From positions 3,171,574-3,235,573 of the forward strand of contig NC_080168.1 in assembly GCF_950295315.1 (NCBI RefSeq): DNA of 64,000 nucleotides, given 5' to 3'. Origin of the DNA: Erinaceus europaeus. Lineage: Eukaryota; Chordata; Mammalia; Eulipotyphla; Erinaceidae. Every line of letters begins with the position of its first letter. Position 1 is the stretch's first letter. Below the pieces are notes generated by a model. The model ran no database searches. It saw nothing but the letters and a program-made list of their open reading frames with translations, and was not told the DNA's origin. A program made the translations under genes and the position numbers. Of this stretch, positions 5,078-46,060 are shown in pieces.

Positions 5078-5088
5078 ACTGCACAGGT

Positions 5089-5320
5089 ATGGGCCCATTG
5101 AATTGCTATCGAACAGGCCATGGCCGGTGCGCCGCTATGTTCCATCGCTGGGGAGCCAGAGACGACCCGAACTGCCCCTGCGGCTCCAGACAGACTATGA
5201 CCCACATAGTCAACAACTGCCACCTCTCCGGATTCAAAGGAGGTCTCGAAACTTGACATCAGGCTCAACCTGACGCTGTTGACTGGCTACGGAAGAAGGG
5301 CAAATGCTAGAAGAAGAAGA
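5089..5320 (+). mobile_element. nLTR-K copy A: 5'-truncated non-LTR element, 11-bp TSD
   Basis: Insert of 232 bp between perfect copies of ACTGCACAGGT (5078-5088 and 5321-5331). It encodes the C-terminus of a non-LTR retrotransposon protein with RTGHGRCAAMFHRWG and a zinc-knuckle-like C-x1-C-x7-H-x4-C (CPCGSRQTMTHIVNNC). The frame has an in-frame TGA 18 codons before the natural-looking TAG, and the DNA then ends in AAGAAGAAGA with almost no 3' UTR. The TSD, 3'-anchored truncation and simple-repeat tail show target-primed reverse transcription. Ending and tail differ from L1. It is about 97-98% identical by eye to copies B and C and keeps many CpGs, which suggests recent insertion. The clade is not determined; the protein style resembles arthropod and other invertebrate elements that I recall being auto-named 'jockey-like'. 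Confidence 0.88.
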
Positions 5321-5331
5321 ACTGCACAGGT

Positions 5332-28321: not shown

Positions 28322-28920
28322 TTTTTTAAATTGCCAACAGGATTATCCCAAGAGCTCAGAGCTGGTATTAATATTATGAATCCACCCATTCCGATGGCCT
28401 TTCTCTTTCTTTTTTGCTTCTTTTTTTCTTCCTATTTTATTTGATAGCACAGAGATAATTTGAGACTTGAGACAAGAGGGAGGGAGGGAAGGAGAGAGAG
28501 AGAGAGAGAGAGAGAGAAGACACTTGCAGAGCTGCTTCAGTCTTCACTGGTCATGAAGAGTCCCCCTGCAGGACAGACCCCTGCAAGCGTCAACCCGGCT
28601 TTGACCTAGCACGTTATGACTGGGCCCTCCTCAATCGCTATCGAACAGGCCATGGCCGGTGCGCCGCTATGTTCCGTCGCTGGGGAGCCAGAGACGACCC
28701 GAACTGCCCCTGCGGCTCCAGACAGACTATGACCCACATAGTCAACGACTGCCACCTCTCCAGATTCAAAGGAGGTCTCGAAACTTGACATCAGGCTCAA
28801 CCTGACGCTGTTGACTGGCTACGGAAGAAGGGAAAACGCTAGGAGGTGAGGAGTGGGCCTAGATCCGGGTCCTTGAGTTAGGGAACCAGCGTGTTTAACA
28901 AGGTTGCTAAGATCAGCTGG
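28322..28920 (-). mobile_element. SINE long form interrupted by nLTR-K copy B
   Basis: Minus-strand SINE: AACAGGATTATCCCAAGAGC and ATGAATCCACCCATTCC (complement of the long-form module), GA-rich body at 28480-28516, then CCCCCTGCAGG at 28562-28572. The SINE resumes after the nLTR-K insert with TGAGGAGTGGGCC, GATCCGGGTCCTTG and a head remnant ending near 28920. Confidence 0.7.
28573..28846 (+). mobile_element. nLTR-K copy B, nested in a SINE
   Basis: 274-bp 5'-truncated copy starting at ACAGACCCCTGCAAGCGTC and ending at the TAG stop (28840-28842) plus GAGG. It carries the same zinc-knuckle (CPCGSRQTMTHIVNDC) and the same in-frame TGA as copies A and C. It differs from copy C at about 5-6 positions in 200 by eye. 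The AAG tail is very short here, and at most 3-5 bases (AGG) could be a TSD. Insertion inside a SINE dates it after that SINE. Confidence 0.85.
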
Positions 28921-33624: not shown

Positions 33625-33976
33625 CCCCTTTTTTTTTGCCTCCAAGGTTATTGCTGGGGCTCAGTGCCTGCACTACAAATCCACTGCTCCTGGAAGCTAT
33701 TTTTTCTCTTGTGTTGCCCTTGTTGTTTTATCCTTGTTGTAGTTATTATTTTTGTTGTTGATGATGGCATTGTGTTAGATAGGACAGAGAGAAATGGAGT
33801 GAGGAGGGGAAGACAGAGAGGGGGAGAGAAATAACAGACACCTGCAGACCTGCTTCACTGCTTGTGAAGCAACTCCCCTGCAGGTGGGGAGCCAGGGGCT
33901 CGAACAGGGATCCTTATGCTGGTCCTTGCGCTTTGCACCACGTGCGCTTAACCTGCTGCGCTATTGCCGGACTCCA
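33625..33976 (-). mobile_element. SINE-A, long form
   Basis: Complete minus-strand long SINE-A: poly(T), CCTCCAAGGTTATTGCTGGGG, CCACTGCTCCTGGAAGC, GTTGCCCTTGTTG module, body, CTCGAACAGGGATCC and TGCCGGACTCC head. Confidence 0.92.
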
Positions 33977-34035
33977 CATCTATGATACTCCTAGTTAGCA
34001 AAAAAGGCTACCGCCTTTAGTGATATAGGTGTTTG

Positions 34036-34686
34036 CTTCTTCTAGCATTTGCCCTTCTTCCGTAGCCAGTCAACAGCATCAGGTTGAGCCTGATGTCAAG
34101 TTTCGAGACCTCCTTTGAATCTGGAGAGGTGGCAGTCGTTGACTATGTGGGTCATAGTCTGTCTGGAGCCGCAGGGGCAGTTCGGGTCGTCTCTGGCTCC
34201 CCAGCGATGGAGCATAGCGGCGCACCGGCCATGGCCTGTTCGATAGCCATTGAGGAGGGCCCAATCATAACGTGCTAGGTCAAAGCCGGGTTGACGCTTG
34301 CAGGGGTCTGTGATGAGGTGTTTGTTCTTTACCTCAGCTGACTGCCAGCTCCGTTTCCAAGAGTCTGGAACAGAGAAGTTCAGTGTAGGCATAGGGGACC
34401 AGATTGGGTGACGAGACGTCAAGCGTTGGACAGGGTGGGCGAAGATATCTGCGTAGATTGGCAGGTCCGGTCAAGCGTAGACGTGGGAAATGAACTTAGA
34501 TGATGCCGCATCCCGACGAATATCTGGCGGGGCGATGTTGCTAAGAACTGGCAGCCATGGAACCGGGGTGGAACGGATGGTTCCAGAAATTATCCTCATG
34601 GAGGAGTATAATTTGGAATCTACCAAGTGGACATGGGGGCTACGGAACCATCCTGGGACACAGTATTCTGCAGTGGAATAGCACAT
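34036..34686 (-). mobile_element. nLTR-K copy C, longest (about 650 bp)
   Basis: Minus-strand copy, 3' tail of AAGAAG at 34036-34041 immediately after a TAG stop (34042-34044). The other end, near 34686, is a 5' truncation by comparison with the protein. It carries the most sequence of the three copies, and its coding part is described separately. Many CpGs survive (for example GCCGGTGCGCCGC), which fits a recent insertion. No convincing TSD was found. Neighbour: a SINE-A ends 60 bases away. Confidence 0.88.
34042..34686 (-). pseudogene. C-terminal ORF of a non-L1 non-LTR retrotransposon
   Basis: About 215 codons in one frame, broken only twice. It starts in the connector region after the reverse transcriptase (CYSTAEYCVPGWFRS), continues through MRIISGTIRSTPVPWLPVLS and RPGFDLARYDWALLN-like sequence, and ends with RTGHGRCAAMLHRWG and the CPCGSRQTMTHIVNDC zinc knuckle. 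One TGA (34468-34470) is not testable in the shorter copies. The other (34093-34095), just after GGLET, is present in all three copies. The reverse-transcriptase core and endonuclease lie beyond the truncation. Such C-termini bind nucleic acid in non-LTR proteins; here it is a relic. Confidence 0.82.
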
Positions 34687-35355: not shown

Positions 35356-35361
35356 GGCGCT

Positions 35362-35720
35362 GGGAGTCCGGCGGTAGCACAGTGGGTTAAGCGCAGGTGG
35401 CGCAAAGCGCAAGGACCGGCATAAGGATCCTGGTTCAAGTCCCCCGGCTCCCCACCTGCAGGGGAGTCACTTCACAGGCGGTGAAGCAGGTCTGCAGGTG
35501 TCTGTCTTTCTCTCCCTCTCTCTGTCTTCCCCTCCTCTCTCCATTTCTCTCTGTCCTATCCAACAACGAATAACATCATCAATGGTAATAGTAATAACCA
35601 CAACAAAGCTAAGGCAACAAGGGCAACAAAAGGGGAAAAAAATGGCCTCAGGGAGCGGCGGATTCATGGTGCAGGCACCGAGCCCAGCAATAAGCCTAAA
35701 GGAAAAAAATAAATAAAAAA
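35362..35720 (+). mobile_element. SINE-A, long form, near-complete
   Basis: TGGGAGTCCGGCGGTAGCAC head, GGTTCAAGTCCCCCGGC B box, body, AACAAGGGCAACAAAAGGGG, then the long module (GGAGCGGCGGATTCATGG, GCACCGAGCCCAGCAATAAG). Flanked by AAGAAAATGATCC and AAGAAAATGACCC, one mismatch. It keeps many CpGs, so it is young. Confidence 0.95.
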
Positions 35721-36720: not shown

Positions 36721-36870
36721 AAATCATAAATTTTCAAATCCCACTGTCTTCATCTTTGTTTTGCAAAAGAAAAAAGTTGTTAGCAACTTCCTGCAAGTCC
36801 CTGTAAAGGTGGACTTACAGAGAGAGTCTCCTGAGAGTTACAAGATGACATTGTAACTTTAGCCTGGAAA

Positions 36871-37005
36871 ACGCTGCTGGTTCCACACCCTTTTTTTTTC
36901 ACCCTGTTACTTTCTTTTACTCCTCCTTTGCCTCTGAACGCTGCTGGTTCCACACCCTTTTTTTTTCACCCTGTTACTTTCTTTTACTCCTCCTTTGCCT
37001 CTGGG
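36871..37005. repeat. 67-bp tandem duplication
   Basis: The unit ACGCTGCTGGTTCCACACCC...CCTTTGCCTCTG occurs at 36871-36936 and 36938-37005. The only visible difference is the length of an internal T run (9 versus 11) and one spacer base. Confidence 0.95.
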
Positions 37006-45334: not shown

Positions 45335-46060
45335 CTTAAACGTTTATCTGGAACCAGATATCACCAAGACTCGCCAAGTGCTTTTGAGAATAGAAAACAT
45401 AACTGGAGGCATCACAGTCCCAGGTATGAAACTAAATAATGGATCCATTATCAGAACTTCCTTGTACTGGAATAAAAATAGGCAAATGACCAATGAAGTA
45501 GAATTGAGAACCCAGAAATAAGTCCCCACACTTATGTAAATCTAATTTTTTTTTCCCCTCCAGGGTTATTGCTGGGCTCGGTGCCTGCACCATGAATCCA
45601 CTGCTCCTGGAGGCCAGTTTTTTCCCCTTTTGTTGCCCTTGTTGTTGTAGCCTCGTTGTGGTTATTATTACCATTGTTGATGTTGTTCGTTGTTGGATAG
45701 GACAGAGAGAAATGGAGGGAGGAGGGGAAGACAGAGAGGGGGGATAGAAAGATAGACACCTGCAGACCTGCTTCACCGCCTGTGAAGCAAGTCCCCTGCA
45801 GGTGGGGAGCCGGGGGCTCGAACCGGGATCCTTAGGCCAGTCCTTGCGCTTTGCACCACGTGCGCTTAACCCACTGTGCCACAGCCTGACCCCCGTAAAT
45901 CTAATTTTTAACAAGAGGGACCAAACTGAATAAAGGAAAGTCTCTTCAATAAATGGTGTTGGGAAAATTGGATTAAAATGTGCAAAAGAATGAAACTGAA
46001 CAAACGTCAATTTCAAATGAATCAAGGACTTGGATGTTAGACCAGAAGCTATCAAATCAT
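45335..46060 (+). pseudogene. L1 ORF2 internal remnant, inverted arm
   Basis: Plus-strand pieces such as [20 protein letters not shown] and NQGL-C, typical of the ORF2 region upstream of the cysteine-rich end. It has several stops and a SINE at 45551-45894. Confidence 0.75.
45551..45894 (-). mobile_element. SINE-A long form with 15-bp TSD
   Basis: Perfect GTAAATCTAATTTTT at 45536-45550 and 45895-45909. Long module (CTCCAGGGTTATTGCTGGGC, CCACTGCTCCTGGAGGCC), body and head (GCCACAGCCTGACCCC) all present. Confidence 0.96.

What the first reader, a model, noticed from the sequence alone, without database searches (positions are those of the whole stretch)
34036..34686. A second, non-L1 non-LTR retrotransposon family in a mammal (nLTR-K), possibly horizontally acquired
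Seen: copy C encodes a protein C-terminus with CYSTAEYCVPGW, RTGHGRCAAMLHRWG and a C-x1-C-x7-H-x4-C knuckle, ending in a stop and an AAG tail. Copies at 5089-5320 and 28573-28846 are about 97-98% identical by eye and CpG-rich. Known: placental mammals usually carry active L1 only, plus BovB/RTE in some lineages, and old L2/CR1; this C-terminus does not look like L1. Inference: a recently active second lineage, and the style of the protein recalls arthropod and other invertebrate elements, so horizontal transfer (for example through ticks or other parasites) is worth testing. I cannot exclude that it is already catalogued.
Basis: partly seen in the sequence, partly recalled or inferred. Interest (0 to 1): 0.87.

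Follow-up and report, generated by a model that had tools for sequence, protein, structure and literature searches.

The report
Truncated hedgehog Vingi retrotransposon copies
This window holds three short copies of the tail end of one jumping gene, very likely the Vingi family that was catalogued in hedgehogs in 2011, so the find is real but probably ordinary.

Summary
Copy C (34036-34686, minus strand) encodes the C-terminus of a non-LTR retrotransposon with the stated C-x1-C-x7-H-x4-C knuckle; two more 3'-end copies (5089-5320, 28573-28845) are 97-98% identical and CpG-rich. Copy A has a perfect 11-bp target-site duplication; copy B interrupts a SINE. A 95%-identical protein from an unnamed contig carries a reverse transcriptase domain. 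Longer kin of about 1000 aa carry endonuclease plus RT, and no RNase H was found in the nine proteins scanned. A young non-L1 family in hedgehogs is already in print as Vingi (2011), and horizontal transfer was already suggested for it (PMC5753468, PMC3183009). An arthropod or tick source is not supported: on two trees the element falls with all three named vertebrate relatives, apart from the named arthropod ones. A detail not in the passages I read: all three copies share one in-frame TGA, 18 codons before the last stop, where most relatives have leucine; they probably descend from one defective or shortened master. Limits: the host genome search did not complete, the 2011 paper is not held, and the Repbase consensus could not be compared, so the family name and the host are inferred.

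The parts
34036..34686 (-). Copy C: 3' end of the element, about 213 codons of the ORF's C-terminus plus a short AAG tail
   Evidence: blastn and translation; 95% identical to P0027 over 212 residues
28573..28845 (+). Copy B: shorter 3' end, inserted in a SINE
   Evidence: 97.1% to copy C over 273 bp; joined flanks align across the junction to SINE copies
5089..5320 (+). Copy A: shorter 3' end with AAG tail
   Evidence: 97.7% to copy C over 216 bp of it (5101-5316); start and end set by the target-site duplication
5078..5088 (+). Target-site duplication of copy A, 5' member
   Evidence: Perfect 11-bp repeat, reached by 0 of 200 shuffles; checked
5321..5331 (+). Target-site duplication of copy A, 3' member
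34132..34179 (-). C-x1-C-x7-H-x4-C knuckle of copy C
   Evidence: Translation CPCGSRQTMTHIVNDC; zf-RVT below cut-off, E 0.14
34096..34098 (-). In-frame TGA shared by the three copies (copy C)
   Evidence: leucine in P0027
28786..28788 (+). The same shared TGA in copy B
5254..5256 (+). The same shared TGA in copy A
34471..34473 (-). Further in-frame TGA in copy C; copies A and B do not reach this place
   Evidence: arginine in P0027

Best explanation
The window holds three copies of only the 3' end of one non-LTR retrotransposon family, very likely the Vingi family catalogued in hedgehogs, each likely left behind by target-primed reverse transcription that stopped early. The element's protein would bind its own RNA, nick the target with its endonuclease and copy the RNA from its AAG-type 3' end; here copying ended within the last few hundred bases of the ORF. 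Shown: a common 3' end, early 5' ends, an AAG tail in copies A and C, an 11-bp duplication at copy A and insertion of copy B into a SINE. Inferred: the Vingi name, the hedgehog host and the enzymology, which rest on relatives and on established knowledge. The TGA shared by all three copies probably came from a common defective or C-terminally shortened master. All three fragments are predicted to be unable to move by themselves, as they lack endonuclease and RT.
For: Three 3'-end copies at 97-98%. Perfect 11-bp duplication, 0 of 200 shuffles. Joined flanks of copy B cross the junction in 24 of 81 reported alignments to window sequence, one row per alignment. P0027 is 95% identical and has RVT_1; longer kin have endonuclease plus RT, and RNase H was found in 0 of 9 proteins scanned at E 0.01. 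Literature: Vingi reported in hedgehogs and reptiles (PMC5753468); Vingi-1N3_EE, 311 copies under 1% from consensus, in the European hedgehog (PMC3183009).
Against: No target-site duplication above chance at copies B and C: 198 and 105 of 200 shuffles reach the best match. No Repbase consensus and no named Vingi protein could be compared. The host was not identified by any search: the genome search did not complete, and the hedgehog assignment rests on recall of its tRNA-derived SINE and on the match to the literature. The organism of P0027 is unknown.
Confidence: 0.88

Rival explanations
1. The family came into the hedgehog lineage by horizontal transfer from an arthropod such as a tick.
For: Arthropods carry relatives: Phlebotomus, Cordylochernes and Nilaparvata at 47-49% to P0027, Uroleucon at 41% to the C-terminus. 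Vingi is reported in locust and Lepidoptera (PMC3391268, PMC4016481, passages).
Against: Copy C or P0027 shares a strongly supported split with 3 of 3 named vertebrates and is separated from 3 of 3 and 4 of 4 named arthropods. The best non-self match is only 55% (C-terminus) or 61% (P0027).
Confidence: 0.03
2. The family came into the hedgehog lineage by horizontal transfer from another vertebrate, for example a reptile, and then expanded.
For: PMC3183009 calls hedgehog Vingi a likely horizontal transfer; PMC5753468 reports Vingi in hedgehogs and reptiles; the element groups with vertebrate relatives.
Against: No close donor was seen: about 50% identity to the three named vertebrates. PMC5753468 lists an old human Vingi, X12_LINE, and PMC9004415 one pre-amniote Vingi fossil in human, so vertical descent with loss elsewhere stays open.
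Confidence: 0.4
3. It belongs to another known non-LTR clade of hedgehogs, such as RTE-BovB, and not to Vingi.
For: RTE-BovB is annotated in the African hedgehog with 1333 copies (PMC12026660, passages). RTE proteins have a similar length and the same two domains (recalled).
Against: The only non-LTR-derived name I recognise in the under-1% hedgehog list of PMC3183009 is Vingi-1N3_EE. A C-terminal CxC...H...C knuckle is not typical of RTE (recalled). No named RTE protein was compared here.
Confidence: 0.06

Closest known systems
Vingi-1 of the European hedgehog (Vingi-1_EE; the non-autonomous Vingi-1N3_EE), Kojima, Kapitonov and Jurka 2011, Mol Biol Evol 28:17-20 (title seen as a citation; the paper is not held; the name Vingi-1_EE is recalled)
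   Same: Young non-L1 non-LTR family of hedgehogs; Vingi-1N3_EE has 311 copies under 1% from consensus (PMC3183009); endonuclease plus RT without RNase H (recalled definition; fits)
   Different: Not compared base by base; the shared TGA could mark a subfamily
Vertebrate relatives: Latimeria P0002, Trachemys P0008, Synaphobranchus P0038
   Same: Same C-terminal region and motifs, same side of both trees
   Different: Only 48-52% identical to copy C
L1 (human LINE-1 ORF2p)
   Same: Non-LTR retrotransposon with a related RT core, E 5e-9
   Different: P0027 matches R2 proteins better, E 4.7e-12; short AAG tail, not poly-A, at copies A and C

Membership tests
Vingi clade | Reverse transcriptase of the non-LTR kind | tested here: met
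   Not in the window; RVT_1 at E 1.7e-32 in P0027, 95% identical to copy C
Vingi clade | APE-type endonuclease at the N-terminus | tested here: inconclusive
   Absent from the window and from the partial P0027; present in 5 of 9 relatives scanned, the longest ones
Vingi clade | No RNase H domain (difference from Ingi, recalled) | tested here: met
   0 of 9 proteins scanned at E 0.01; none in the Pfam column of the 120 rows listed
Vingi clade | RT tree: sister of Ingi | not testable with these tools
   No named Ingi or Vingi protein came back; trees hold no clade references
Vingi-1 of hedgehog | High DNA identity to the Repbase consensus | not testable with these tools
   Repbase is not on hand; PMC3002237 not held
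Vingi-1 of hedgehog | Host is a hedgehog | tested here: inconclusive
   The genome search 'own' did not complete; the SINE type is recalled as hedgehog
L1 | Protein closer to L1 ORF2p than to other non-LTR elements | tested here: not met
   R2 proteins E 4.7e-12, L1 ORF2p E 5e-9
RTE / BovB | Close relation to named RTE or BovB proteins | not tested
   No named RTE protein was obtained

The most novel reading that the evidence does not exclude
All three copies descend from one master whose ORF is cut 18 codons early by the shared TGA, yet which kept amplifying: either the conserved C-terminal end is dispensable, or a defective Vingi lineage is copied in trans by an intact one. P0027, which has leucine there, could represent such an intact lineage, making the hedgehog a mammal in which a non-L1 machine drives its own parasites.
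Probability: 0.35. Interest if true: 0.3.

Novelty: already known. Interest (0 to 1): 0.14.

Why it matters
A young non-LTR lineage other than L1 in a placental mammal is unusual, but for hedgehogs it has been in print since 2011. The modest additions here are that the relatives point to a vertebrate rather than an arthropod background, and that a stop codon shared by all three copies may mark a subfamily that could be traced through hedgehog species.

Tried and rejected
Viral contigs: 2 stretches matched a pattern, none confirmed. Prokaryote genome contigs: 32 stretches, none confirmed. Rfam at gathering thresholds: no match in the window. NCBIfam: only matches far below the cut-offs. tblastn of 12 relatives against the window found the three copies and one antisense match of the first 20 residues of P0027 to copy C. 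Low-complexity artefact: rejected, as the copies encode a conserved protein segment. Arthropod source: not supported. Papers on Vingi were sought, on hedgehog repeats. No bootstrap tree and no AU test were run on the longer alignment: one search is the quick method with SH-aLRT only.

Full report
WHAT IS THERE. Copy C reads on the minus strand as about 213 codons of a protein C-terminus, with CYSTAEYCVPGW, RTGHGRCAAMLHRWG and CPCGSRQTMTHIVNDC, then TAG (34042-34044) and AAGAAG. Copies A (5089-5320) and B (28573-28845) are further 3' ends on the plus strand. blastn gives 97.7% over 216 bp (A against C, from 5101 to 5316) and 97.1% over 273 bp (B against C). CpG observed/expected is 0.72, 0.79 and 0.68 in A, B and C against 0.19 for the window.

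BROKEN FRAME. Copy C has a TGA at 34471-34473. All three copies have a TGA at one aligned place, 18 codons before the TAG. Among 145 aligned relatives that place holds L 111, I 13, F 11, V 4 and a gap in 6, and 136 of 145 have ten or more residues from that column on. These rows are predicted proteins, which could not show a stop there; the count shows only that the end is conserved. P0027, identical to copy C at 201 of 212 residues, has leucine at the shared place and arginine at the other. As all three copies share the stop, it was most likely in their common source (inference).

HOW IT GOT THERE. Copy A is flanked by the perfect direct repeat ACTGCACAGGT (5078-5088, 5321-5331), reached by 0 of 200 shuffles; the best matches at B and C are no better than chance, 198 and 105 of 200. 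The joined host flanks of B align across the junction to other window sequence in 24 of 81 reported alignments, at 60-73% identity; many of these are copies of the abundant SINE. That this is the hedgehog tRNA-derived SINE is recalled. The copies begin inside the ORF; A and C end in a short AAG tail, and B does not show one clearly. This is the anatomy of 5'-truncated target-primed reverse transcription (established for non-LTR retrotransposons, recalled).

AGE. Differences: 8 of 273 (B-C), 5 of 216 (A-C), 7 of 213 (A-B); of these 4, 3 and 5 are of CpG type by my script's rule. The three pairs are not independent. Without the CpG type 8 of 702 remain. With the rate of 2.2e-9 per site per year used in PMC12026660 (passage) this is about 2.6 million years, or 6.5 million with all 20 differences: rough figures.

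RELATIVES. The 213-residue query found 26 proteins among 60 candidates; the named ones are Latimeria (51%) and Trachemys (48%). With longer candidates admitted it found 45 among 168: P0027 (95%, 582 aa, unnamed contig of 2072 bp), then 55% and less; named are Synaphobranchus (52%) and the aphid Uroleucon (41%). P0027 as query gave 2384 matches among the 7983 candidates scored, of which 120 are listed; named in that list are Phlebotomus, Cordylochernes and Nilaparvata at 47-49%, and the best non-self match is 61%. Pfam at E 0.01 finds RVT_1 in 9 of 9 proteins scanned, an endonuclease domain in 5 of 9 (the five longest) and RNase H in none. Copy C alone matches only zf-RVT, below its cut-off (E 0.14). 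Solved structures: R2 proteins at E 4.7e-12, human L1 ORF2p at E 5e-9. P0027 is probably hedgehog DNA in a metagenome (inference). Its first 20 residues match the antisense of copy C at 15 of 20, as a 5' inversion or a chimeric contig would give.

TREES. C-terminal tree: of 159 proteins fetched, 145 had enough of the segment; with copy C and after dropping unnamed rows 90% or more alike, 131 rows remained. Copy C and P0027 pair at 100/100. A 65-row set (97/91) holds them and 3 of 3 named vertebrates; a 60-row set (95/91) holds 3 of 3 named arthropods; the aphid row was not in this tree. RT plus C-terminus: 134 rows cut to 93 at 80% identity, named rows kept, quick method. One split (SH-aLRT 100) has P0027 and 3 of 3 named vertebrates among 34 rows on one side and 4 of 4 named arthropods among 59 on the other. 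The Latimeria row fills only 38% of its columns. The place of the hedgehog element within the vertebrate side differs between the trees.

LITERATURE. All papers were seen as passages found by term, not read whole. [quoted passage not shown] X12_LINE is listed as human Vingi. PMC3183009: 'older likely horizontal transfers in mammals such as Vingi TEs in hedgehogs', and Vingi-1N3_EE with 311 copies under 1% from consensus. PMC9004415: one pre-amniote Vingi fossil in human. PMC3747384: Vingi-2_Acar as partner of an anole SINE. PMC7561263: Vingi in anole, rare and mostly fixed. PMC3391268 and PMC4016481: Vingi in locust, Heliconius and Bombyx. PMC12026660 (outline and passages): in the African hedgehog paper the word Vingi does not occur; it lists 4476 I-Jockey copies, 1333 RTE-BovB copies and 51 unclassified LINE consensus sequences. 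PMC6542046: RTE1_Sar of the shrew was not found in hedgehog reads. PMC3500645 only cites the 2011 paper; PMC6036668 does not mention hedgehogs. The 2011 paper is not held; what I say of it beyond its title is recalled.

VERDICT. A real, young non-L1 retrotransposon, very likely the catalogued hedgehog Vingi. The idea of horizontal transfer is already in print, and an arthropod source is not supported here. Already known.

Noticed in passing
window 36870-37003: A 67-bp unit is tandemly duplicated with 100% identity, so the duplication is very recent or is an assembly effect.
   Followed up: partly
P0027 residues 1-20 against window 34404-34463 (+ strand): The start of the 95%-identical protein matches the antisense of copy C at 15 of 20 residues: a 5'-inverted insertion or a chimeric contig.
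   Followed up: partly
window, many places (for example 33690-33980, 35361-35660, 45705-45833): Dense copies of one tRNA-type SINE (type recalled as hedgehog); copy B sits inside one.
   Followed up: partly
PMC12026660 (African hedgehog repeat survey, 2025): The survey does not use the word Vingi and proposes an unknown species-specific LINE family from seven unclassified consensus sequences; some of its unclassified or I-Jockey entries may be Vingi (inference).
   Followed up: no
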